Assembly: GCA_902517565.1 (NCBI GenBank)
Contig: CABYCU010000003.1
Location: forward strand, 1 to 53,517
Origin: an uncultured SAR86 cluster bacterium
GTDB lineage: Bacteria > Pseudomonadota > Gammaproteobacteria > Magnimaribacterales > Magnimaribacteraceae
DNA length: 53,517 bases
Direction: 5' to 3'
Shown here: one piece after another, positions 2 to 45,948 of the stretch
How the letters are laid out: the number at the start of each line of letters is the position of its first letter
Position numbering within the stretch: position 1 is the first letter of the stretch
Made by a program: the position numbers and the translations under genes
The notes under the pieces: model-generated
Database searches by the model: none
Seen by the model: the letters and a program-made list of their open reading frames with translations, nothing else
What the model was told of the DNA's origin: nothing

Positions 2-613
2 ATTATTGTTCCCAAGGATACGCCTGGTATTTCTCTTAAAAGAATGTTGACGGTCTACGGATCTGATCATGCTCCGAGTGGTCATGCACATTTGATATTT
101 GAAGACGTGAGGGTTCCAAAGGAGAATATGATTCTTGGAGAGGGAAGAGGGTTTGAAATTGCACAAGGTAGATTGGGCCCAGGTAGAATTCATCATTGTA
201 TGAAGATCATTGGGGCTGCAGAAGTTGCACTAGAGCTTTTATGTAAGAGAGCGTCCACTCGTAAAGCATTTGGTAAAGCAATTGCAGAATTAGGAGGGAA
301 CTATGATGTGATTGCTAAATGTCGTAATGAGATTGAGATGTGCAGATTATTAACTCTTAAAGCTGCTTTTATGATGGACACTTTAGGAAATAAAGAGGCT
401 AAAAGTGAGATTGCTCAACCTAAAGTTGAGGTACCTAGTATGGCTGTTCGAGTTATAGAAAGGGCAATACAGATCCATGGAGGAGCAGGAGTCTCTCAAG
501 ATACGCCCCTTGCCAGTTTATATAGCTCGATACGCTATCTAAGAATAGGCGATGGACCTGATGAAGTTCACCTTAGAACGATCGCTAAAGAAGAGCTTAA
601 AAAATATTCTTAA
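2..613 (+). CDS. Acyl-CoA dehydrogenase, ACAD10/11-like (5' truncated by window edge)
   Basis: The reading frame is open from base 2 (I-I-V-P-K-D-T-P-G), so only the C-terminal half of the protein is present and the ATG at 44 is internal. The fragment carries the C-terminal FAD-binding and dimerisation half of an acyl-CoA dehydrogenase, with [10 protein letters not shown], the RKAFGK loop, and a final block [12 protein letters not shown] followed by IGDGPDEVH. The GGAGVSQD...DGPDEVH pattern resembles the ACAD10/ACAD11 subgroup more than short-chain FadE proteins. Members of that subgroup can process 4-hydroxyacyl-CoAs after phosphorylation by an APH-fold kinase, and such a kinase lies at 12935-13939. 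Family assignment is firm; substrate is inferred. The stop is followed by a convergent gene 24 bases away. Confidence 0.93.
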
Positions 614-10084: not shown

Positions 10085-10090
10085 TATAAT
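10085..10090 (+). promoter_or_regulatory. -10 element of the peroxiredoxin-P450 operon
   Basis: A perfect TATAAT lies 24 bases before the peroxiredoxin ATG at 10115. The Shine-Dalgarno AAGGAG follows at about 10103-10108, so this operon has a conventional leader, unlike several other units in the window. Confidence 0.5.
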
Positions 10091-10114: not shown

Positions 10115-10597
10115 ATGACAATACAAGTTGGAGACACTTTACCTTCAATCAATTTAATGACGATGACTGCTGAAGGACCAAAACCGGTTTCTATTCCTGA
10201 CCTTTCTTCTGGAAAGAAAATTGTTCTATTTGCTGTTCCCGGAGCCTTTACTCCCACTTGTCATATTCAACACCTTCCCGGCTTCTTGGAAAAGAATAAA
10301 GAAATCAGAGATATGGATGTCGATTTGATTGCATGTATTGCCGTCAATGATCCTTTTGTGATGAATGCTTGGGGCAAAGATAGAAATGTCGGTGAAGATG
10401 TAATGATGCTATCTGATGGAAATGGAGAATTTACTGCTGCTATAGGTTTAGAAATGGATGGCAGTGGTTTTGGTTTGGGTACGAGGTCTCTAAGGTATTC
10501 AATGATCATAGATGACGGAGTAGTTTCATCTCTGAATGTGGAAACTGGTCCAGGTCTTGATGTGAGCTCAGCTGAGACAATACTAGAACAATTATAA
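10115..10597 (+). CDS. Peroxiredoxin, Prx5 / atypical 2-Cys type
   Basis: The 160-residue thioredoxin-fold protein has the Prx5 signature VPGAFTPTCHIQHLPGF with peroxidatic Cys49 in the PTC motif. GTRSLRYSMIIDDGVV near residues 122-137 is also typical of the AhpC-TSA/redoxin Prx5 group. It reduces hydrogen peroxide and organic peroxides with thioredoxin or glutathione as donor. A strong AAGGAG precedes the ATG. The stop is only 3 bases from the start of the P450 gene, so the two should be co-transcribed. This suggests protection against peroxide from P450 uncoupling or lipid peroxides, which is inference. Confidence 0.93.
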   Translation: MTIQVGDTLPSINLMTMTAEGPKPVSIPDLSSGKKIVLFAVPGAFTPTCHIQHLPGFLEKNKEIRDMDVDLIACIAVNDPFVMNAWGKDRNVGEDVMMLSDGNGEFTAAIGLEMDGSGFGLGTRSLRYSMIIDDGVVSSLNVETGPGLDVSSAETILEQL

Positions 10598-10600
10598 AAA

Positions 10601-11839
10601 ATGACAAAGCCCATTTATGACATAGGCCAAATTTGCGAGCTAGATAAATGGGAAACTTTTATTGACGGACAGCCGTTTGATACTTTTAAAAGACTTCGAA
10701 ATGAAGCTCCCATATATTGGCACGAAGAAAGCTTAGATTTTGAACCTGGTTTCTGGGCCATTACTAAACACGAGGACATAATAAAAGTTTCTAAGGATCC
10801 CATGACTTTCTCTTCTGCTGTTGGAGGTCATTTAATGACTATGGGAGATCCTGCTGTAGTGGATCCTTCGGCAATAGCAGCAATTATCGGCAATATGATC
10901 GGTATGGATCCTCCTGATCATCAGATTTATAGAAAAATGGTAGCTCCCAGCTTCACACCGAAAGCTATAAGAAGTTTAGAAATTGATATGAGGGCTAAGA
11001 TCCAAGAGCTTCTTGATAATATTGAGGGCAAAAGCGAATTTAATTTTGTTACAGAAATTTCTGAGCAGTTACCTCTATGGGTACTTTGCGAAATGATGGG
11101 AATTCCTGAATCTGAGAGGCCCAAAATAAGAGATTTAGTAAATAAACTTACTGATGCATCAGCGCAGCAAGACCCAAATAACGCTTTTCAAATATGGGTC
11201 AACTATATGGAACTCTTCAAGATGGGAAGGGATATGATTGAAGAAAGAAGGAAAAATCCTTCTGATGACCTTATGAGTATTGTGGCAAATACTAAAGTTG
11301 AAGGTGCACAACTTCCACCAGAGTTATTAGATGGTTTCTTTTTATTGATGGTTATTGCTGGCAATGAGACTACTAGGAACACTCTCACTGGTGGCCTAAT
11401 GGCATTAACTGAAAATCCAGAAGAAAGAGATAAGCTTTTAAAAGATCCTTCTTTGATTTCAAATGCTACTGATGAAATGCTTAGATGGGTAACATCAGTC
11501 ATATATTTTAGAAGAACAGCCACTAAAGATACAAATATTAGAGGCCAAGATATTAAGGCTGGAGATAAGGTTGTTATGTGGTACGGTTCAGCCAATAGAG
11601 ATGAAGATGTATTTACTGATGGGCATAAGTTTAGGGTTGATAGAGACAATGCTAAGAAGCACCTTGCTTTCGGTGCAGGAGAACACCTATGCTTAGGAAA
11701 TAGATTGGGCCATATGCAGATAAGGATATTATTTGAAGAGCTTTTGGCTCGCTATCCCAATATTCACTCAGTTGCTGAGCCGACAAGAATTCCTTCAAAC
11801 TTTTTGGCAGGGATATCGGAGTTGAAGGTTAGCTTATAG
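10601..11839 (+). CDS. Cytochrome P450, bacterial class I (CYP124/125/142-like)
   Basis: This 412-residue soluble P450 has the I-helix oxygen-activation motif AGNETT (about residue 253), the K-helix ExxR in DEMLRW and the heme loop FGAGEHLCLG with axial Cys364. The segment GMDPPDHQIYRKMVAPSFTP matches the B-C region of actinobacterial and proteobacterial P450s that hydroxylate fatty acids, isoprenoids or sterol side chains. The resemblance to the CYP124/125/142 clan is my impression, not a search result. No ferredoxin or ferredoxin reductase gene is in the window, so the electron donor is elsewhere. It sits 3 bases behind a peroxiredoxin and 2 bases ahead of the next gene in a five-gene run. 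Confidence 0.96.
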   Translation: MTKPIYDIGQICELDKWETFIDGQPFDTFKRLRNEAPIYWHEESLDFEPGFWAITKHEDIIKVSKDPMTFSSAVGGHLMTMGDPAVVDPSAIAAIIGNMIGMDPPDHQIYRKMVAPSFTPKAIRSLEIDMRAKIQELLDNIEGKSEFNFVTEISEQLPLWVLCEMMGIPESERPKIRDLVNKLTDASAQQDPNNAFQIWVNYMELFKMGRDMIEERRKNPSDDLMSIVANTKVEGAQLPPELLDGFFLLMVIAGNETTRNTLTGGLMALTENPEERDKLLKDPSLISNATDEMLRWVTSVIYFRRTATKDTNIRGQDIKAGDKVVMWYGSANRDEDVFTDGHKFRVDRDNAKKHLAFGAGEHLCLGNRLGHMQIRILFEELLARYPNIHSVAEPTRIPSNFLAGISELKVSL

Positions 11840-11841
11840 AT

Positions 11842-12930
11842 ATGATTTCTAAAGGAGACGACTTTCCTATTCATCAACTACCATCCCCAGTTGCAGAAGT
11901 TGGCTCTGAGAGAAACTTTTACGATCGCTACTTCTTTAATGGTTATAACGAAGACGGAAGTATATTCTTTGGAGCAGCATTTTGTGTTTATCCTAATTTG
12001 AATGTAAAAGATGCAAGTTTCATACTAGTTTTAGATGGTATCCAACATAACTTCAGATATTCTGGTGTGCTTAATCACGAGAGAATGGAAACAGGTGTAG
12101 GTTCTTTTAAGATTGAAATAGTTCAACCGCTTAAGAAAATCAGAATAAAAGTTGAGGATAAAGAAAAAGATATTTCTGTTGATATTTCTTTTAACGGACG
12201 TTTCGAGCCCATGGAAGAACCAAGGATGGTGTTAAAAAATGGTCCTAGAATCTACATGGATTCTACTCGTATGACGCAACATGGAACATGGATAGGAAAT
12301 ATTTCATTCAAGGATCTAACCATAGATCTTTCGGATCGAAGTTATATGGGTACTAGAGATAGATCATGGGGTGTCAGGCCCGTGGGTGCTCAAGACACTC
12401 AGATTGTCCCCCCATTAAAATTACCTCAATTCTATTGGTTATGGGCTCCGGCTAATTTTATTGACCAATCTTCTCATCTCTATTTTGTAGATGATGAAGT
12501 TGGCTATGCTACTCATAGCCATTGTGTGAAACAAACAAATGATCAGAGTTTCAAGTTATATGATTTAACAAAAGAAATTGAATATAAAAAGGGCTCAAGA
12601 CGAATAAGCAAAGCAAAATTTTCTGCTTCCAAAGACGACGGAACAAAAGTAATTTGGTCCTTAACACCTAAATATCATATTTATATGTGTGGGTTGGGCT
12701 ATATGCATCCGGAGTGGGGCCATGGTCAGTTTCATGGAGAAAATCAATCTCTTTATGATTATTACGATTTAGCAGAAGACCCTCATGACCCTCCTTTTCT
12801 CCACATACAGGCTATCTGTGATTTTGAAATGAATGAAGAGGGCCTTAGTAAAAAAGGAATAGGTGCCTTAGAGCAACTTCTTATAGGCCCGCATCTTACT
12901 AGCGGTTTTGAAGGGTTGTTAGACGGATAG
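11842..12930 (+). CDS. DUF7064/7065-like protein of unknown function
   Basis: The 362-residue protein has no signal peptide, no membrane segment and no classical catalytic signature. A striking central block, GTRDRSWGVRPVG (about residues 171-183), followed by FYWLWAP, is the hallmark I associate with the DUF7064/DUF7065 pair of beta-rich, lipocalin-like domains. That name is from memory and should be tested. The predicted composition is mainly beta strand. Such proteins often sit beside APH-fold phosphotransferases and acyl-CoA enzymes, as here: it starts 2 bases after the P450 stop and ends 4 bases before the kinase. Ligand binding or a hydratase or isomerase role on the P450 product is possible but unproven. 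Confidence 0.85.
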   Translation: MISKGDDFPIHQLPSPVAEVGSERNFYDRYFFNGYNEDGSIFFGAAFCVYPNLNVKDASFILVLDGIQHNFRYSGVLNHERMETGVGSFKIEIVQPLKKIRIKVEDKEKDISVDISFNGRFEPMEEPRMVLKNGPRIYMDSTRMTQHGTWIGNISFKDLTIDLSDRSYMGTRDRSWGVRPVGAQDTQIVPPLKLPQFYWLWAPANFIDQSSHLYFVDDEVGYATHSHCVKQTNDQSFKLYDLTKEIEYKKGSRRISKAKFSASKDDGTKVIWSLTPKYHIYMCGLGYMHPEWGHGQFHGENQSLYDYYDLAEDPHDPPFLHIQAICDFEMNEEGLSKKGIGALEQLLIGPHLTSGFEGLLDG

Positions 12931-12934
12931 CTAA

Positions 12935-13939
12935 ATGTCTGAAGAACTTTCCTCTTTGTTTCTTTCTTACTATTCAGACTTATCAAATAATGAGTTTTCA
13001 CAAGTAAATTTAGAAAGAATTTTTGGAGGCGCAAGCAGAGAAACTTATCGAGTAAAGATTAAGGATAGTTCTGATAACGAAGAGAGCTTAATCCTAAGAC
13101 TTTCTCAAGATAGTTCTTTAATCGAAACAGAGCAAAAAACTGAATACTTGGCTTATTCAGCTTTTCAAAAATCAAGGGTTCCCGTACCAATTTTAATCGA
13201 TATGTCAGAGGATGATTCTCAGCTAGGAGCACCTTTTATGTTGATGGAAGAACTAGAGGGAGAGGCGGCCAGTCCCTTTACTCCAAATGTATACTCTCCT
13301 TATGAAGAAGACATAGGTAATCAGTTCTGGTCAATTTTAGGACAGATAGCTAAAAAAGAAATAGATTCTAATATTTTTGAAGACTTTTCTAAGGGTTCAA
13401 AGAAACCATTTTGGGAATGTGAATTGGATAAATGGGTCAAAGTAATACATGAAGACTCTATAGGAGTGGAGCCCATATTGGAGTCGGGTATAAGACATTT
13501 ATATCGAAATCCACCTATTGAGAATAAAAGGGTGAGTATGGTGCATGGAGATTACAGAAGCGGTAACTTTTTATACTCAAAAAATAAGATAACAGGAATT
13601 TTAGATTGGGAGATGGCACATTTAGGAGATCCTTTAGAAGATCTAGGTTGGGCTTTATCACCAATCTGGAGTTGGCAAGATAAAGAGCGTCCTGCATATC
13701 TGCTTATGAGAGAAGAGGCTATCAAATTATGGGAAAAAACTAGTGAGATTAAAATTGATAGAAACGATCTTAAATGGTGGGAGTTATTTGCTGCAGTTAA
13801 AGGAATGGCGATATGGATCTCTGCGGGGAATGAATTTAAGTCAGGAAAGAATATCGATCCTATAAATTTATTTTCTGCCTGGATACCTGGAGACATACAT
13901 TTAGAGGTTATCTTAGACATTTTAGAAAGTAATATATGA
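12935..13939 (+). CDS. APH-fold phosphotransferase (ACAD10/LvaA-like acyl-CoA kinase candidate)
   Basis: The 334-residue protein has the kinase-like APH fold. The N-lobe has the glycine-rich FGGASRETYRV (about residues 30-40). The catalytic loop is HGDYRSGN with Asp206 and Asn211, and the metal-binding DWE has Asp224, followed by MAHLGDPLEDLGWA. This last string is typical of the ACAD10/ACAD11 kinase domain and of bacterial partners such as LvaA of the Pseudomonas levulinate pathway, which phosphorylate the hydroxyl of 4-hydroxyacyl-CoA. It is not an antibiotic-resistance gene by context. It overlaps the following small gene by 4 bases, consistent with translational coupling. Fold is certain; substrate is inferred. 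Confidence 0.93.
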   Translation: MSEELSSLFLSYYSDLSNNEFSQVNLERIFGGASRETYRVKIKDSSDNEESLILRLSQDSSLIETEQKTEYLAYSAFQKSRVPVPILIDMSEDDSQLGAPFMLMEELEGEAASPFTPNVYSPYEEDIGNQFWSILGQIAKKEIDSNIFEDFSKGSKKPFWECELDKWVKVIHEDSIGVEPILESGIRHLYRNPPIENKRVSMVHGDYRSGNFLYSKNKITGILDWEMAHLGDPLEDLGWALSPIWSWQDKERPAYLLMREEAIKLWEKTSEIKIDRNDLKWWELFAAVKGMAIWISAGNEFKSGKNIDPINLFSAWIPGDIHLEVILDILESNI

Positions 13940-14379
13940 AACCCGATATAAATATAGCTCTTCTCAACGCCGCTCAAGAAATTATCAATAGGTTTAGCCC
14001 GCTTATTGATGATGAGTATGAGAGGTCTCGTTTGGGTTCTTGGGGAGCTCTTATATTGATCTCTGCAATGAAATTTAACGAAGCAGGGTCAGCTCTGCAA
14101 AAAGAAAATTTAGAAATAATAGATTGGCTTCTGGCTAGCTCTAGATTGGACGAAAAAGACGTTAATCCGTATAGAACAATAGAGGATACCTGTAAAAGTT
14201 TAGAAGAGTTAGACCAAGACAATCAAGCATTGAGAGTGCTTTTGAACAAGGAGGTAGAGCACCTTGAAAAAAAAGGTGATGGTATTTTATTAAAGAGTGT
14301 TTTTTCTTTGTTTAGATCGATGCATCAAAGAAGAAAGGTGAGCGAACTTATAGGTCTATTGCAGCAAGCAGAAAGTTAG
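13936..14379 (+). CDS. Small helical protein, DUF6285/LvaB-like candidate partner of the kinase
   Basis: This 147-residue all-helical soluble protein begins LLNAAQEIINRFSPLIDDEYE and continues with RSRLGSWGALILISAMKFNEAG. It has no catalytic signature. The overlap of 4 bases with the APH-fold kinase (ATGA) suggests coupled translation and a stable complex. In the levulinate pathway a small protein (LvaB) is needed for activity of the APH-like kinase LvaA, and DUF6285 proteins commonly follow such kinases. I place this protein in that role from context and general resemblance only. Its stop codon overlaps the stop of a small minus-strand gene. Confidence 0.85.
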   Translation: MKPDINIALLNAAQEIINRFSPLIDDEYERSRLGSWGALILISAMKFNEAGSALQKENLEIIDWLLASSRLDEKDVNPYRTIEDTCKSLEELDQDNQALRVLLNKEVEHLEKKGDGILLKSVFSLFRSMHQRRKVSELIGLLQQAES

Positions 14380-14594: not shown

Positions 14595-15650
14595 CTATTT
14601 CTTAGCTTGGAAAATTGTAAATTCAACTATACCAATACCGTTTTCTCCCCTAACTGAATACAATAAATAGTTTCTTCCGTTTTCAGAATAGATAGCAGGA
14701 TCTCTTAATTGATTAGCTGGAATATTAATCGCACTTTCTACAGACTTGTATAATGGTAGTGTAGCTCCTTCCCACTCTTTTTCAGGCCTTAGAACCTCTA
14801 TTGGCTTCGAAGTCTTCCATGAAGTTAACGGTAATGTAAGATCAATTGTTGTAAGCAATATGCGTTCAGGTTTATCACCCTTTTTGGTGTAAAAAATAAG
14901 GAGTTCATCTTCATGCACCATCACTGCACTATGCCTAGTATCTTCATCCATGACTTGATTTACAATCGTAAAATCTTCCAGATCTCCAGAATTCTTGTAG
15001 ATAACACCAGGCATCGAAATACCATACTCATAACCTTTATATGAAAATTTTCTAAAATAAGGCCATCCAACAATTTTTTTTCTAGCTAAAAAATTTATGC
15101 CATCATTTGATACAGCTACCCTTGTTTTTTGAAGGCCAAATTCGTCTAGCCCATGATAATACATGACTATTCTTTGATTAATTTCATCTACATGAGCATC
15201 TGGAGAAGCAATATGAGGATAGGTTAGATCGGCAATTTTTTTGGGTATGTGTTCAATATGGTCTATGTGGGCATCTCTTTCCCCAAGGCTATTTAGGTCA
15301 AAATCGTCAGGGATATCAGGCTTTTTAGTTAAAAAATGGGAGTTCTTAAGTTGTAGTGTGCCACCAGCGTGTATTTTCCAGGGACCGTCAAGGTCTTCTG
15401 AATAAGCGAGTTTAATTCTATCTCCCTTGTGATCTGCAAAGTATAGATAGTATTTCCCTAGTGGATTTTTAATCCAATCCGGAGTTTTAATTAGAGATGG
15501 ACCATTGATATTAGATCCAATTTCCTCTTTAAGAAAAGGAGGTATTATTGGTTCATCAATAAAACGGTTTATTTCTATCTTCAAATCAGTCTTTTCTGCA
15601 CTGCAACTTAATAGTAACCCCAAAATTATCGATGTGAAATAATTCCTCAT
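14595..15650 (-). CDS. Lipoprotein with glycoside-hydrolase-like beta-propeller (GH43/GH32 clan)
   Basis: The 351-residue protein starts with a lipoprotein signal: a hydrophobic stretch ending in a lipobox LLSC with Cys at about 16. The mature part contains repeated propeller blades with motifs such as GKYYLYFADHKGDRIKLAYSEDLDGPW, RIVMYYHG and SNDGINF. These Y-Y-F/W blades are typical of the five-bladed GH43, GH32, GH68 and GH117 folds that cleave plant or algal polysaccharides. SPDAH could hold an active-site acid, but I cannot assign the catalytic triad. A surface or periplasmic sugar-processing role is inferred. It diverges from parE over 67 bases and no sugar transporter is adjacent. Confidence 0.75.
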   Translation of the reverse strand: MRNYFTSIILGLLLSCSAEKTDLKIEINRFIDEPIIPPFLKEEIGSNINGPSLIKTPDWIKNPLGKYYLYFADHKGDRIKLAYSEDLDGPWKIHAGGTLQLKNSHFLTKKPDIPDDFDLNSLGERDAHIDHIEHIPKKIADLTYPHIASPDAHVDEINQRIVMYYHGLDEFGLQKTRVAVSNDGINFLARKKIVGWPYFRKFSYKGYEYGISMPGVIYKNSGDLEDFTIVNQVMDEDTRHSAVMVHEDELLIFYTKKGDKPERILLTTIDLTLPLTSWKTSKPIEVLRPEKEWEGATLPLYKSVESAINIPANQLRDPAIYSENGRNYLLYSVRGENGIGIVEFTIFQAKK

Positions 15651-41218: not shown

Positions 41219-42055
41219 ATGTGGGTTTTCTTAAATGGAAACATATTAAGAGAAGAAGAGGCCAGGATTTCTCCCCTCGATAGAGGTTTTACATTTGGTG
41301 ATGGCGTTTATGAGGTGATTCCTTCATATAATAATAAGCCTTTCCTTTTTGACGAACATTTGGAAAGACTTAAAGATTCCCTCAATAAATTATTCATACC
41401 TCTACCAGGTGTTTTAGATGAACTGGATACAATTCTTTACGAATTGCATAAGAAAAATAAACATAAGAATCAATCTTTTTATATTCAAATAACTCGAGGC
41501 ACACAAGATATTCGTTCTCATGATGCAGAAAAAGATATTGTTCCTACTATTTTTATAACTTCCCAAAGTTTGCAAATAAATCCTTATAGAAATTCACCTG
41601 GAAGAATAGGTCTAAGAGTGCGGTTAGAAGAAGATATCCGCTGGGCTAGATGCGATATAAAGACTACAGGATTAACTGGAAATATATTATCTGCTCATGA
41701 TCCTTCTAAAAAATCTTGTGATGAGATTATCTTTTATAAGGATGGAATAATAAACGAGGGATCAAAATCAAATGTTTTTATACTTTTAGACCAGAAAATT
41801 CTCACACCTTCATTAGATCAGAAGATACTGCCAGGAGTTACAAGGCGTTTTATTATAGAAAGTCTTCGTGACACAGATCTGGAGGTTAAGGAAGTTCCAA
41901 TCAGTTTGGACATGTTTCATCGTTCTGAAGAAATATGGTTAACAAGTTCGACCAAAGAACTACAACCAGTCCATTTTGTTGATAATATTGAGCTTCCTAA
42001 AAAAAGGTCTCAAAATTACATCTGGCCTAAAATTCTCAATTATTTTGATTATTAA
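41219..42055 (+). CDS. dat: D-amino acid aminotransferase (class IV, Dat-like)
   Basis: The 278-residue PLP fold-type IV protein begins VFLNGNILREEEARISPLDRGFTFGDGVYEV, typical of Dat and BCAT enzymes. The catalytic Lys lies in the DIKTTGLTGNIL segment (about residue 145), and EGSKSNVF binds phosphate. Dat-type enzymes interconvert D-alanine and D-glutamate. Position directly after dacA (7-base gap) is common in proteobacteria and favours Dat over aminodeoxychorismate lyase or BCAT. GGAGG of the Shine-Dalgarno lies inside the dacA 3' end, 12 bases before the ATG. Stop interlocks with holA in TTAA. Confidence 0.9.
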   Translation: MWVFLNGNILREEEARISPLDRGFTFGDGVYEVIPSYNNKPFLFDEHLERLKDSLNKLFIPLPGVLDELDTILYELHKKNKHKNQSFYIQITRGTQDIRSHDAEKDIVPTIFITSQSLQINPYRNSPGRIGLRVRLEEDIRWARCDIKTTGLTGNILSAHDPSKKSCDEIIFYKDGIINEGSKSNVFILLDQKILTPSLDQKILPGVTRRFIIESLRDTDLEVKEVPISLDMFHRSEEIWLTSSTKELQPVHFVDNIELPKKRSQNYIWPKILNYFDY

Positions 42056-43023
42056 AAATTCAAAGCTAATTCACGTATTGACTGCCATGCATTCTTCTTC
42101 GAAAGACCTTTAATAGCTGTATCTATCTCAGCTATATCTTTTAGTGATTTTTTTATTTTAGATCTTGAAGTTTTCTTTGCTTTCTCTGAAAGTAAATCTA
42201 AATAATGTCTGGGCCCCCAGATATTATTTGGTGAACCTTCTTCTATAACTTTGTAGAGATTGTAAATTTCTTTTGATAATGCCCATAGAATTAGGGGAGG
42301 CTGTGTGCCTTCAGATTTGAGTAATTCGATAATTTTTACAGTTCTTTTTTTGTCTCCAGAAACGAAGGCATTTGATAAATCAAAAATGCCATATGACGAG
42401 GCATTAGATATAGATTTTTCCATCATTTTAAAATCTATAACTTGTGATGGAAATAATAATGAAAGTTTGATTAATTCTTGCGTCGTAGCAAGTAAATTAC
42501 CTTCAGTTTTTTCTGAGAGTAAATTTATGGCATTTTGGTCTATTTTTATATTAAGCCCTATAGCTCTTTTGCTTATCCATTTTGGCATAGAGGAAATATG
42601 GATCGGTGATTCAATCACTGTAGTTCCTGTTTCTTCAAGTGATTTAGCCCAAGCACTCGACTGTGCTTTCTTTTCAAGTCTCTCTGCAGAAAAGATTAAT
42701 AGTTTATTTTCATCAGGGTTAGCACAGTACTCCTTGATAGCCTTAGATCCTTTATTACCTGGTCCTATGCCTATTAACTTGATTTCTATTATTTTTTTTG
42801 ACCCAAATAAATCAAGATTTTCATTAGTAGTTTCAAGGAAAGACCAATCAGTATCCTTAGAAATGATAAAAGTCTGTTTTTCTTCAAAACCATTTTTTTT
42901 TGCTAATTTTATGACCTGGTCACTTAGCTCTGTTATTTGAATAGACTCTTCAGCAAAGAAAGTATAGATGCCTTGAATCTGATTCTCGCTTTCACGAAAA
43001 AAAGTATCTCTATTGAGTTTCAT
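42052..43023 (-). CDS. holA: DNA polymerase III subunit delta HolA
   Basis: The delta subunit opens the beta sliding clamp as part of the clamp loader. The 323-residue protein has the delta pattern: GIYTFFAEESIQITELSDQVIK, then KKIIEIKLIGIGPGNKG, LLIFSAERLEKKAQSSAW and the C-terminal LILWALSKEIYNLYKV. It lacks Walker motifs, as expected for delta. It is slightly shorter than the E. coli protein. It overlaps lptE by 14 bases in the usual leuS-lptE-holA order. Confidence 0.93.
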   Translation of the reverse strand: MKLNRDTFFRESENQIQGIYTFFAEESIQITELSDQVIKLAKKNGFEEKQTFIISKDTDWSFLETTNENLDLFGSKKIIEIKLIGIGPGNKGSKAIKEYCANPDENKLLIFSAERLEKKAQSSAWAKSLEETGTTVIESPIHISSMPKWISKRAIGLNIKIDQNAINLLSEKTEGNLLATTQELIKLSLLFPSQVIDFKMMEKSISNASSYGIFDLSNAFVSGDKKRTVKIIELLKSEGTQPPLILWALSKEIYNLYKVIEEGSPNNIWGPRHYLDLLSEKAKKTSRSKIKKSLKDIAEIDTAIKGLSKKNAWQSIRELALNF

Positions 43024-43504
43024 ATTTCTGGCTTGCCAATAAGAATTCCATATTTTTTAAAGCTCTTCTTATAAAATTTTCTGATGTAATCTCAATCTCT
43101 TTCTCAAATGCTAGAATATTTGATTGATTAAAATCTATAAATTTTGAATCGTTAAATTGGTTAATGAACTTTTTAGAGTTCTTTTTTGTTACTTCATAAA
43201 CTATAGAGTAATCTAATCTGACTTGAGTTGTTCTTGCACCAGATCCGATTGAACCGACAAACTTTTCTATTTTGTGTTCTCTAATTTGTAAGGCTAAATC
43301 GTACTTAGAATCTTTTGGCTCTAAGTTATTATTAAGGAGATTTAATTGACGCTCTAATTCTAAATTTAACTCAGAGTCAGTTGCAATAAAATCAATCAGT
43401 TTGTTTGAAAGCACTTCTGATTGTGTTCTTAATTCATATCCACAAGCATTAATGATGAACACAAATAATATAAAAAATACCTTTCTGGAAAAGATGTCTG
43501 TCAT
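43010..43504 (-). CDS. lptE: LPS-assembly lipoprotein LptE
   Basis: LptE plugs the LptD barrel during LPS insertion in the outer membrane. The 164-residue protein starts with a lipoprotein signal with the lipobox INAC (Cys about 21), followed immediately by GYELR, the typical LptE mature N-terminus. The remaining sequence is the alpha/beta sandwich with YDLALQIREHKIEKF and VRLDYSIVYEV. It is small and divergent, as LptE usually is, so context (between leuS and holA) carries much weight. It overlaps leuS by 4 and holA by 14 bases. Confidence 0.93.
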   Translation of the reverse strand: MTDIFSRKVFFILFVFIINACGYELRTQSEVLSNKLIDFIATDSELNLELERQLNLLNNNLEPKDSKYDLALQIREHKIEKFVGSIGSGARTTQVRLDYSIVYEVTKKNSKKFINQFNDSKFIDFNQSNILAFEKEIEITSENFIRRALKNMEFLLASQKYETQ

Positions 43505-45948
43505 ACAACTATATTAATTATCTTGCCAGGAACATAAATAACCTTCCTCACTTTTTTAGTTTCAGTATGTATAGCAATCTTTTCATCGGCTAGGGATAAA
43601 GACTTTATTTCCTCTTCTGGGGTATCACTAGCGACCTCTATTTGCGAACGCAACTTTCCATTGACTTGTATGGCTATTGTTAATTTACTATCTTCTAATA
43701 GATCTTCTTCAATTTCGGGCCATCCGACATCTAAAATTAATTCAGAAGGGTAGATCTTCCACCATAGGAATTGGCTAAGATGAGGTGTAATTGGAGATAG
43801 CATAATTAAAATTGCTTCTATAGCTTCATTAACAGCTCTTCTACATTCTTTATTTGAATTTTCTTCAAGAAACTCTTTAGGAATTTCATTTGATAATTCC
43901 ATGATTGCTGCAATTGCGGTATTGAAACTATGTCTTCTTAAGTAGTCATCCTTTACTTTAGCTAGAGTTTTATGTGTTTTAGATCTAAGTTTATTGATTG
44001 CTTCCTCTGAAGACTGGAGAGACCCAGATTCAGGGATACCCAAATCTATATGTTTATTAACCAATCTCCATATTCTATTTATAAATCTATTAGCGCCTTG
44101 AACACCTTGATCAGACCACTCTAAAGACTGTTCAGGAGGAGCTGCAAACATAACAAAAAGTCTGACAGTATCTGCACCATATTTCTCTATAAGCCCCTGG
44201 GGATCGACTGTATTTCCTTTAGATTTTGACATTTTAGTGCCGTCTTTTAATACCATTCCTTGACACAGCAGATTTTTAAAAGGCTCGTCCCCTTCAATCA
44301 ATCCTAGATCTCTCATACACCTATAAAAGAATCTAGAATAGAGCAAATGTAAAACCGCATGTTCGATCCCTCCAACGTATTGATCAACTGGTAACCAATA
44401 CTTTGCTCTGTCATCTATCATAGAATCCTTGCTATCGAAACTTGCAAATCTTGCGTAATACCATGATGACTCAAAAAATGTATCAAAGGTATCAGTCTCA
44501 CGTTTTACTTTCTTACCATCTTGTTCGACATTTAGGAATTCATCCATATCTTTTAGAGGAGAGCTAACGCCTTGAAATGCAACTGTAGTTGGGAGTTTTA
44601 CTGGAAGGTCTTTGGCACCAAATGTATTAATTCCGTCACTTAACACGGGGATAGGAGCGCCCCAATAACGTTGCCTGGAGACACCCCAGTCTCTTAGCCT
44701 AAAATTTGTTTCTTTTTTTCCGCATTTTAATTTTTTAGCTTTTATTTCAATAGCTTTGAAGGCCTCTTCAAAATTTAACCCGTCAAATTCTCCAGAATTA
44801 ATTAATTTATTTTTTTCAATAAAAGCTTCACTTGTTGACTCTGTCTCTCCAGGACCTTCGATAACTTGAAGGATTGGTAATTCATACTTTGTTGCGAATT
44901 CAAAATCCCTTTGATCATGAGCTGGAACTCCCATAAGCGCACCAGAACCATAATCACTAAGTACAAAGTTTCCTATCCAGATAGGTATTTTTTTCCCAGT
45001 GAATGGATGAACTGCATCGATTCCGGTATAGATGCCTTCTTTTTCTTGCTTGGCAAAATCTGCTTCTGACTGTTTTACTTTATTCTGCTCTTCTATAAAT
45101 TGTCTAATCAAATCATCTTCTTTTGATCTTGCTTTGCTTAGGAAATGAGATGCTGAGATCGCAATAAATGAGACCCCCATTATCGTATCAGGTCTTGTGG
45201 TAAAGACATTTATGCTGTTCTCGTAATTATTTACTTCAAAAGTAAAGTTCATCCCTTCCGATTTACCTATCCAATTTTTCTGCTGAGTTTTAACTTGTTC
45301 AGGCCATCCTGTAAGCAGTTCTGTGCCTGCTAGTAACTCTTCGGCGTAATCAGTTATTTTTAAGAACCATTGCTTAAGTCTTTTCTTCTCGACTTCAGCT
45401 CCTGAGCGCCAACCCTTGCCATCTATAACTTGCTCATTTGCCAAGACAGTCTGATCAACAGGATCCCAATTTACTTCTGCTTCTTCTTGATATGCCATTC
45501 CTTTTTCTAGCATTTGCAAGAAAAACCATTGCTCCCATTTATAGTAATCTTCTTCTGAAGTAGCAAATTCCCTTTTCCAGTCGTAAGCAAATCCCAGCTG
45601 TGTAAGTTGGGTCTTCATACTTTCTATATTTTCAAGAGTCCAAGAAGAAGGTTGAACTTTGTTATTTATGGCAGCATTCTCAGCAGGCAGGCCAAAGGCA
45701 TCCCAGCCCATTGGCTGTAAAACATTTTTTCCCAGCATCCTTTGAAATCTGCTTATTGCATCTCCAATACTATAGTTCCTGACATGTCCCATATGTATTG
45801 AGCCACTAGGGTAGGGAAACATGCTCAAACAGAAGTATTTTTCTTTATTAGGATCTTCAGTTACAGAAAATGTTTCATTTTCAGACCAATAGTTTTGAAC
45901 TTCTTTTTCAATATTCCCTGGTTCATAAGGAAAATCTTCTTCGGGCAT
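43501..45948 (-). CDS. leuS: Leucyl-tRNA synthetase
   Basis: The 815-residue class I synthetase charges tRNA-Leu. The HIGH motif appears as HMGH at 52-55 in GSIHMGHVRNYSIGDA and KMSKS as GTKMSKSKGN. The CP1 editing domain holds TTRPDTIMG-like VFTTRPDTIMGVSF and LMGVPAHDQRD, so editing residues are intact. The length is 40 to 50 residues below the E. coli enzyme, mostly in the insertions. It overlaps lptE by 4 bases and lies 2 bases after accC. No leucine-codon or T-box leader is present. Confidence 0.98.
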   Translation of the reverse strand: MPEEDFPYEPGNIEKEVQNYWSENETFSVTEDPNKEKYFCLSMFPYPSGSIHMGHVRNYSIGDAISRFQRMLGKNVLQPMGWDAFGLPAENAAINNKVQPSSWTLENIESMKTQLTQLGFAYDWKREFATSEEDYYKWEQWFFLQMLEKGMAYQEEAEVNWDPVDQTVLANEQVIDGKGWRSGAEVEKKRLKQWFLKITDYAEELLAGTELLTGWPEQVKTQQKNWIGKSEGMNFTFEVNNYENSINVFTTRPDTIMGVSFIAISASHFLSKARSKEDDLIRQFIEEQNKVKQSEADFAKQEKEGIYTGIDAVHPFTGKKIPIWIGNFVLSDYGSGALMGVPAHDQRDFEFATKYELPILQVIEGPGETESTSEAFIEKNKLINSGEFDGLNFEEAFKAIEIKAKKLKCGKKETNFRLRDWGVSRQRYWGAPIPVLSDGINTFGAKDLPVKLPTTVAFQGVSSPLKDMDEFLNVEQDGKKVKRETDTFDTFFESSWYYARFASFDSKDSMIDDRAKYWLPVDQYVGGIEHAVLHLLYSRFFYRCMRDLGLIEGDEPFKNLLCQGMVLKDGTKMSKSKGNTVDPQGLIEKYGADTVRLFVMFAAPPEQSLEWSDQGVQGANRFINRIWRLVNKHIDLGIPESGSLQSSEEAINKLRSKTHKTLAKVKDDYLRRHSFNTAIAAIMELSNEIPKEFLEENSNKECRRAVNEAIEAILIMLSPITPHLSQFLWWKIYPSELILDVGWPEIEEDLLEDSKLTIAIQVNGKLRSQIEVASDTPEEEIKSLSLADEKIAIHTETKKVRKVIYVPGKIINIVV

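What the first reader, a model, noticed from the sequence alone, without database searches (positions are those of the whole stretch)
10115..14379. Five-gene peroxiredoxin-P450-DUF7064/65-kinase-DUF6285 operon: candidate oxidise-and-phosphorylate catabolic route
Five plus-strand genes follow each other with gaps of 3, 2, 4 and -4 bases and one conventional promoter. A P450 adds a hydroxyl; an APH-fold kinase with HGDYRSGN and DWE motifs could phosphorylate it; the coupled small helical protein resembles the small partner LvaB required by the Pseudomonas putida kinase LvaA for 4-hydroxyacyl-CoA. The truncated ACAD at 2-613 looks like ACAD10/11, whose mammalian members remove such a phosphate. 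If correct, this is a sterol, isoprenoid or fatty-acid route in which a P450 makes the hydroxy acid that the kinase/ACAD pair then reroutes into beta-oxidation. The central DUF7064/7065-like protein has no known role and would be a new component.
Basis: partly seen in the sequence, partly recalled or inferred. Interest (0 to 1): 0.75.

Follow-up and report, generated by a model that had tools for sequence, protein, structure and literature searches.

The report
Kinase-plus-lyase cassette for dehydrating alcohols
A marine SAR86 bacterium carries an operon in which a P450 enzyme is coupled to a kinase, a phosphate-eliminating lyase and a small helper protein, which probably turn a hydroxylated lipid into an alkene at the cost of ATP; related lyase-kinase pairs recur in several bacterial phyla.

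Summary
The five genes and gaps (3, 2, 4, -4) are as described. 27 of 36 fetched relative loci carry the same operon, all 27 from the window's own SAR86 family. The key correction is the central protein: it belongs to the Rv3169 family (343 bits, cut-off 150) and is homologous to 25-phosphosteroid lyase (PDB 9fzn, profile E 2.5e-72), the enzyme named for eliminating phosphate from a phosphorylated tertiary alcohol. It is not a DUF7064/7065 protein, although that family is a distant homologue. The small protein is not detectably LvaB/DUF6285; it is an all-helical family without a Pfam match, found in 30 of 31 loci with this kinase type and 0 of 49 others. Best reading: ATP-dependent dehydration (phosphorylate, eliminate phosphate) coupled to a P450. 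Lyase-kinase adjacency spans Pseudomonadota, Actinomycetota and Thermodesulfobacteriota. Dissimilar P450s (26-40% identity) sit near the lyase in SAR86, the Parvibaculum order, Halieaceae and Rhodococcus, though most lyase loci have none. The truncated ACAD lies 9.5 kb away. The substrate is unknown; steroid ring breakdown is not required. No activity has been shown.

The parts
10085..10090 (+). TATAAT, possible -10 element (by eye)
   Evidence: Read; not reported by the consensus scan, so weak.
10115..10597 (+). Peroxiredoxin (Redoxin/AhpC-TSA), first gene; role unclear, perhaps peroxide protection beside the P450
   Evidence: Pfam PF08534 4.4e-35; present in 27 of 27 fetched loci of the window's own family.
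10601..11839 (+). Cytochrome P450: makes the alcohol, or oxidises the alkene afterwards
   Evidence: PF00067 3.2e-28; heme motif FGAGEHLCLG and AGNETT; best PDB matches CYP125MRCA 1.8e-98, then CYP126, CYP153-like, CYP124; only P450 found in the genome (genome 74.6% complete).
11842..12930 (+). Predicted phosphate-eliminating lyase of the Rv3169 family, homologue of 25-phosphosteroid lyase
   Evidence: NF053593 343 bits, cut-off 150; PDB 9fzn E 1.4e-43 by sequence, 2.5e-72 by profile; AlphaFold pLDDT 90.3, almost all beta.
12935..13939 (+). APH-fold kinase ('K type'), predicted to phosphorylate the alcohol
   Evidence: PF01636 1.1e-30; HGDYRSGN and DWE; clusters apart from DUF6285-linked kinases.
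13936..14379 (+). Small helical partner of the kinase, family without a Pfam match, overlaps the kinase gene by 4 bases
   Evidence: No significant Pfam, NCBIfam or PDB match; in 30 of 31 K-type kinase loci and 0 of 49 others; AlphaFold all-helical, pLDDT 87.0; no PDB fold match at E<=0.001.

Best explanation
The operon encodes ATP-dependent dehydration of a hydroxylated lipid, coupled to a P450. The kinase, with its small partner, phosphorylates a hindered (probably tertiary) hydroxyl with ATP. The Rv3169-family lyase then eliminates phosphate to leave an alkene. The P450 either makes that hydroxyl first, so that P450 + kinase + lyase together act as a desaturase, or oxidises the allylic carbon afterwards, as a molybdenum enzyme does in Sterolibacterium. 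The peroxiredoxin probably protects against P450-derived peroxide. Shown: gene order and its conservation, family membership, homology of the lyase, association of the small protein with this kinase type. Inferred: the reactions, their order, and the substrate (isoprenoid or branched lipid, possibly a sterol side chain).
For: Lyase homology to 25-PSL with motifs FYDRY, YPN and G(T/S)RDRSWGVRPVG kept. The reference reaction sequence (tertiary alcohol, phosphoester, alkene) is shown in Sterolibacterium (PMC7411048, passages; PMC8449060, named parts). A kinase of one of three types lies on the same strand within 300 bases of the lyase in 60 of 80 named loci, and within 0.6 kb in 12 of 16 fetched plasmid stretches. 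In 7 of 9 fetched loci of the other SAR86 families the lyase is followed by another APH kinase; the one tested matches PDB 9fsg (3.9e-35) and 3ats (1.2e-31). A P450 lies on the same strand directly upstream of the lyase in 27 of 27 fetched loci of the window's family, in 13 of 30 loci of the Parvibaculum order and in Halieaceae L109; in Rhodococcus pRB98 it is one gene away. These P450s are 26-40% identical across groups.
Against: No activity is known for any protein of this operon. The nearest P450 relatives in the PDB (CYP125, CYP124, CYP153 groups) mostly make primary alcohols (recalled), which fits P450-after-lyase better than P450-before. The window's kinase is only remotely like 9fsg (2.6e-5) and nearer to 3dxp and ACAD11. 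20 of 80 lyase loci have no adjacent kinase of these types, and 2 of 9 in the other SAR86 families have none. Only 18 of 80 lyase loci have a P450 within 8 kb by the model used, 13 of them from the window's own family. The lyase could have changed substrate or reaction.
Confidence: 0.66

Rival explanations
1. 4-Hydroxyacyl-CoA route like P. putida LvaA/LvaB with ACAD10/11: the kinase phosphorylates a hydroxyacyl-CoA and an ACAD removes the phosphate.
For: The kinase's best PDB matches are a protein annotated as acyl-CoA dehydrogenase (3dxp) and, third, ACAD11. The small gene sits where lvaB sits. Some actinobacterial lyase loci carry CoA ligases and ACADs.
Against: The small protein is not detectably DUF6285. 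The kinase clusters apart from DUF6285-linked kinases (moderate support). No ACAD was seen within the fetched stretch around the operon in 27 of 27 family loci (stretches reach about 8 kb or less upstream). The genome has a separate ACAD-kinase-DUF6285 set. A dedicated lyase homologue is present.
Confidence: 0.15
2. Sterol side-chain catabolism proper: the substrate is a 25-hydroxysterol and the cell grows on sterols. (A special case of the best explanation, so the odds overlap.)
For: Homology to 25-PSL; P450 nearest to CYP125MRCA in the PDB; SAR86 draft genomes reported with the steroid pathway (PMC4810484, passages); the two KshA-bearing relatives found, G020 and G024, both carry the operon.
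Against: KshA was found in 0 of 19 genomes of the genus, this one included, and in 2 of 41 relatives searched, while the operon is in 27 of 36 fetched loci. Several of these genomes are incomplete (this one 74.6%).
Confidence: 0.15
3. Biosynthesis or remodelling of the cell's own envelope or pigment lipid, not catabolism: P450 + kinase + lyase introduce a double bond. (Same reactions as the best explanation, other purpose, so the odds overlap.)
For: No CoA ligase or beta-oxidation gene in the operon. The lyase family is near-universal in the Parvibaculum order (37 of 40 genomes over the cut-off), which suits a core function. In M. tuberculosis the Rv3168-Rv3169 operon is controlled by a regulator whose regulon is enriched for PDIM lipid genes (PMC5340868, passages).
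Against: The known biochemistry is catabolic. Some actinobacterial plasmid loci are rich in catabolic genes.
Confidence: 0.25
4. Antibiotic or xenobiotic inactivation by the APH-fold kinase, with unrelated neighbours.
For: APH fold; weak matches to aminoglycoside and macrolide kinases.
Against: These matches are far below their cut-offs; kinase-lyase linkage is conserved across phyla.
Confidence: 0.03

Closest known systems
25-hydroxysteroid kinase + 25-phosphosteroid lyase of Sterolibacterium denitrificans
   Same: Lyase is a clear homologue (the PDB table gives the molecule name, not the organism); kinase plus phosphoester elimination is the same logic.
   Different: Kinase is another subtype (with 9fsg taken as 25-HSK by inference); hydroxylase here is a P450 rather than a molybdenum enzyme; an extra small protein and a peroxiredoxin; genes adjacent here, whereas in S. 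denitrificans no lyase candidate lay near the kinase gene (PMC8449060, discussion).
Rv3168-Rv3169 operon of Mycobacterium tuberculosis (described only)
   Same: Phosphotransferase + Rv3169-family protein in one operon (PMC5340868, passages); NF053593 is named after Rv3169.
   Different: No P450 or small partner in the two-gene operon described; different kinase type if 3ats is Rv3168 (identity recalled).
LvaA-LvaB(-LvaC) of Pseudomonas putida and mammalian ACAD10/ACAD11
   Same: Kinase with a small partner that binds it and is needed for growth (PMC6692424, passages), then phosphate removal.
   Different: Phosphate removed by an ACAD; substrate 4-hydroxyacyl-CoA (passages of PMC12440821 and PMC11342911); small protein is DUF6285 (recalled for LvaB itself), which the window's is not.
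DUF7064/7065 + APH kinase + DUF6285 operon (seen here in the Parvibaculum order and a Desulfobacteraceae MAG)
   Same: Same three-part layout; DUF7064/65 is a distant homologue of the lyase (97.4%, E 9.6e-12).
   Different: Different subfamilies: lyase-like part, kinase and small protein.

Membership tests
Rv3169 family (NF053593) | Score above the curated cut-off | tested here: met
   343.1 bits against 150 over residues 3-348.
25-phosphosteroid lyase type (25-PSL) | Homology over most of the length with conserved motifs | tested here: met
   Profile E 2.5e-72, profile positions 2-314 of 367.
25-phosphosteroid lyase type (25-PSL) | Eliminates phosphate from a steroid 25-phosphoester | not testable with these tools
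   Needs an enzyme assay.
25-hydroxysteroid kinase / 9fsg-3ats type kinase | Kinase belongs to that subtype | tested here: not met
   Window kinase to 9fsg 2.6e-5 and 3ats 3e-7, against 3.9e-35 and 1.2e-31 for the kinase of L047 in a sister family. That 9fsg is 25-HSK itself is an inference.
Sterolibacterium-type pathway | Molybdenum-dependent C25 and C26 hydroxylases | not tested
   Not searched; the operon has a P450 instead.
Lva / ACAD10-11 4-hydroxyacyl-CoA route | Small partner is LvaB/DUF6285 | tested here: not met
   DUF6285 is not among the Pfam matches of any of 22 members; hhalign 0.6% and 1.1%.
Lva / ACAD10-11 4-hydroxyacyl-CoA route | Linked ACAD removes the phosphate | tested here: not met
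   No ACAD within the operon; the nearest is a fragment 9.5 kb away; none labelled in the fetched stretches of 27 family loci.
Lva / ACAD10-11 4-hydroxyacyl-CoA route | Kinase groups with DUF6285-linked kinases | tested here: not met
   Separate groups in a 54-row tree, K type 24 rows 93/91, DUF6285-linked 9 rows 90/100, neither starred; the tool warned of long branches meeting, and no true LvaA row was present.
DUF7064/DUF7065 | Score above Pfam gathering cut-off | tested here: not met
   No hit at E<=1; distant homology only.
CYP125 family P450 | Membership of the CYP125 family | tested here: inconclusive
   Best PDB match is CYP125MRCA, 333 bits; no CYP tree made.
APH-fold kinase | Pfam APH cut-off and catalytic motifs | tested here: met
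   107.6 bits against 23.2; HGDYRSGN, DWE.

The most novel reading that the evidence does not exclude
There is a widespread, unrecognised toolkit of two parallel three-part cassettes, (Rv3169-family lyase + K kinase + this small protein) and (DUF7064/65 lyase + kinase + DUF6285), that dehydrates lipid alcohols through phosphoesters; aerobic bacteria have repeatedly plugged different P450s into the first, making an ATP-paid desaturase. DUF7064/65 proteins would then be phosphate lyases, and the small protein a new family of kinase partner.
Probability: 0.4. Interest if true: 0.85.

Novelty: new variant of a known kind. Interest (0 to 1): 0.68.

Why it matters
It gives a testable reaction to several uncharacterised families at once: Rv3169-family proteins beyond the solved 25-phosphosteroid lyase, DUF7064/7065, and a small protein family with no Pfam match. 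It would tie an anaerobic trick for activating sterol side chains to P450s in SAR86, an abundant uncultured marine lineage. It also suggests that some genes annotated as aminoglycoside or other 'phosphotransferase' beside a 'hypothetical protein' (for example) are lipid-alcohol kinases with their lyase.

Tried and rejected
Rejected: DUF7064/65 and DUF6285 labels for the window proteins. The ACAD at 2-613 as part of the system, because of distance and opposite-strand genes between; its conservation was not properly tested. Steroid ring breakdown as a requirement. A known fold for the small protein: 0 PDB matches at E<=0.001 among 132 at E<=10. The third gene of Rhodococcus L162 as the same small family: no model hit; it leans weakly to DUF6285 (8%).

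Led nowhere: a search for the L047-type kinase in 19 genomes (17 with lyase loci lacking an adjacent kinase, 2 with another kinase type; L148 not held) found matches in 17 of 19, at 22-33% identity apart from one short stretch at 45%, so it does not show an unlinked partner kinase.

Not done: fold search of the lyase model; complex prediction of kinase + small protein; redox partners of the P450; molybdenum C25 hydroxylases; fetching S. denitrificans itself. No paper on the lyase structure turned up in the searches; DUF7064 and DUF7065 gave no paper; in the listing (20 papers, titles and abstract starts seen) none is about steroid phosphoesters.

At least 14 of the 30 loci with the small protein were rows of the model used to find it. 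The kinase-type models were seeded from the same 80 loci. The 36 fetched relatives are 36 of the 40 other genomes over the cut-off. The 30 loci of the Parvibaculum order are 30 of 37 genomes over the cut-off and reach only 1.5 kb to each side. The 14 DUF7064/65 loci were chosen from the weak matches and identified by models built from L075 and L112 (DUF7064/65, Pfam-checked) and from A3 (DUF6285), not by Pfam. The kinase tree left out the L047-type kinases, which lack the HGD motif used as a filter.
Full report
Observation. The five plus-strand genes at 10115-14379 are real, with gaps of 3, 2, 4 and -4 bases. Pfam gives a peroxiredoxin, a P450 and an APH-fold kinase; the third protein has no Pfam hit at E<=1 and the fifth only two below cut-off. 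No consensus promoter was found upstream by the scan; a TATAAT at 10085-10090 is visible by eye. Record titles of close relatives place the window in the SAR86 clade.

The central protein. NCBIfam assigns it to the Rv3169 family at 343 bits against a cut-off of 150. Its only PDB matches at E<=10 are two sequences named 25-phosphosteroid lyase, 9fzn and 9g4c (1.4e-43 and 6.7e-43). A 44-row profile gives 2.5e-72 over positions 2-314. FYDRY, YPN, G(T/S)RDRSWGVRPVG and the residues aligned to W292 and H294 are kept; those aligned to H289 and P290 are not. The model is confident (pLDDT 90.3, pTM 0.90) and almost all beta. In S. denitrificans a tertiary C25 alcohol is phosphorylated by ATP and phosphate is then eliminated to an alkene (PMC7411048, passages; PMC8449060, abstract and outline, first part of the text, one results section, discussion). 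In 2021 the lyase gene was unknown and no candidate lay near the kinase gene; in 2024 it was still called putative (PMC11061730, passages).

The kinase. It has an intact APH signature but is not the subtype seen in other SAR86 families. There the lyase of L047 is followed by a kinase matching PDB 9fsg (3.9e-35) and 3ats (1.2e-31), whereas the window's kinase matches them at 2.6e-5 and 3e-7 and has 3dxp as its best match. That 3ats is Rv3168 is recalled; that 9fsg is 25-HSK is inferred. In a 44-row lyase tree (midpoint root) the window's SAR86 lyases pair at 100/100 with 7 lyases whose kinase is of that other type (SAR86 of other families and two alphaproteobacteria), not with the other K-kinase lyases; holding the 18 K-linked lyases together is rejected (p-AU 1.3e-6). 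So the kinase was probably exchanged while the lyase stayed. In a 54-row kinase tree K-type kinases cluster apart from DUF6285-linked ones, at 93/91 and 90/100, neither starred, and the tool warned of long branches meeting.

The small protein. It has no significant Pfam, NCBIfam or PDB relative. Its model is an all-helical bundle (pLDDT 87.0) with no PDB fold match at E<=0.001. Profile comparison with DUF6285 gives 0.6% and 1.1%. It goes with the K-type kinase: 30 of 31 K-type loci have it, the miss being cut by the contig end, and 0 of 13, 0 of 16 and 0 of 20 loci with two other kinase types or no adjacent kinase (model and sample overlap, see biases). It overlaps the kinase gene by 4 bases in 19 of 27 family loci. 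Among 61 relatives it is in 32, all in the window's own family (32 of 35, against 0 of 26 others). It also lies between kinase and lyase on a Rhodococcus plasmid (L184, E 6e-10). So by position it works like LvaB, without being detectably related. LvaB binds LvaA and is required for growth on levulinate (PMC6692424, passages).

Linkage. Rv3169-family matches occur in 44 of 61 relatives, 41 of 61 over the cut-off, own genome included. I fetched 36 loci from other genomes. 27 of 36 have all five genes in order, and these are all 27 fetched from the window's family; of the other 9, 7 have lyase + kinase without an adjacent P450 and 2 the lyase without a kinase. Of 80 named loci, 60 have a kinase on the same strand within 300 bases and 20 do not. 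In the order of Parvibaculum sedimenti (Parvibaculales, name recalled) 37 of 40 genomes have the family over the cut-off; of 30 loci examined 28 have lyase-kinase-small protein, the other 2 being cut, and 13 of 30 have a co-oriented P450 just upstream. Halieaceae L109 has a P450 62 bases upstream. Plasmid pRB98 of Rhodococcus oxybenzonivorans has an AMP-binding protein, P450, thiolase-like protein, lyase, kinase, a 177-residue protein of another family, and an aldehyde dehydrogenase in a row. Across these groups the P450s share 26-40% identity, which suggests separate recruitments. Against that, only 18 of 80 named lyase loci have a P450 within 8 kb by the model used, 13 of them from the window's own family. 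SAR86 relatives hold few P450s (0-3 matches in 59 of 61, 6 and 11 in two), and only one was found in this genome, so chance adjacency is unlikely. Of 25 plasmid records I fetched 16: 12 have a kinase on the same strand within 0.6 kb of the lyase (one, L186, on an overlapping ORF), 2 none found, one about 2.8 kb away, one only a lyase fragment.

The parallel cassette. True DUF7064/7065 proteins are distant homologues of the lyase (97.4%, E 9.6e-12 over 190 columns). In 14 of 14 fetched loci of the Parvibaculum order, and in Desulfobacteraceae L112, they stand first in a row with an APH kinase and DUF6285 (Pfam for L112). The window's genome has its own DUF7064/65 gene (L075), not beside a kinase, and a separate ACAD-kinase-DUF6285 set (L074).

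Substrate. Unknown. KshA, a marker of steroid ring breakdown, was found in 2 of 41 relatives and in 0 of 19 genomes of the genus, so the operon does not need it, although both KshA-bearing relatives carry the operon and SAR86 genomes with the steroid pathway were reported (PMC4810484, passages). The P450 is nearest in the PDB to CYP125MRCA, then CYP126, an alkane hydroxylase, and CYP124; these groups act on sterols, alkanes and branched lipids (recalled), so an isoprenoid or branched lipid is the best guess. They mostly make primary alcohols (recalled), which argues for the P450 acting after the lyase; the order is open.

Verdict. A P450-coupled variant of the kinase-lyase dehydration known from anaerobic sterol breakdown, with a small partner family not in Pfam. 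Confidence 0.66 for the reaction logic; substrate open.

Noticed in passing
L112:1893-4309; L232-L245: Three-gene row DUF7064/7065 - APH kinase - DUF6285, in 14 of 14 fetched loci of the Parvibaculum order and one Desulfobacteraceae MAG, parallel to the window's lyase-kinase-small protein set.
   Followed up: yes
L074:6809-9354 (own genome, contig C2): ACAD, kinase and DUF6285 in a row: the genome's likely LvaC-LvaA-LvaB-type set.
   Followed up: partly
L075:6796-8792 (own genome, contig C1): DUF7064/7065 gene next to a luciferase-like monooxygenase, with no kinase found in the fetched stretch.
   Followed up: no
L060, L070: In two family-f2 SAR86 genomes the lyase gene sits without a kinase in a block that looks by eye like leuS - lyase - small protein - holA; the look-alike block of the window (42052-45948) has no lyase.
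   Followed up: no
L073:7839-8937: Lyase gene split into two ORFs in one relative: pseudogene or sequencing error.
   Followed up: no
L047, L094-L099, L102: In other SAR86 families a small START/polyketide-cyclase-like protein follows the kinase instead of the window's small protein (Pfam for L047).
   Followed up: no
L164, L185, L187, L188: These actinobacterial lyase loci carry a PEP-utilizing enzyme or pyruvate phosphate dikinase, and three of them a phosphatase.
   Followed up: no
L193:6932-8375: Sphingobium plasmid holds a lyase-family fragment next to an IS3 transposase.
   Followed up: no
window 14595-15650 (-): Weak, below-cut-off similarity to glycoside hydrolase family 43; neighbour of the operon in many relatives.
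   Followed up: no
window 2-613: ACAD fragment cut by the contig start; 44% identical to the C2 ACAD.
   Followed up: partly
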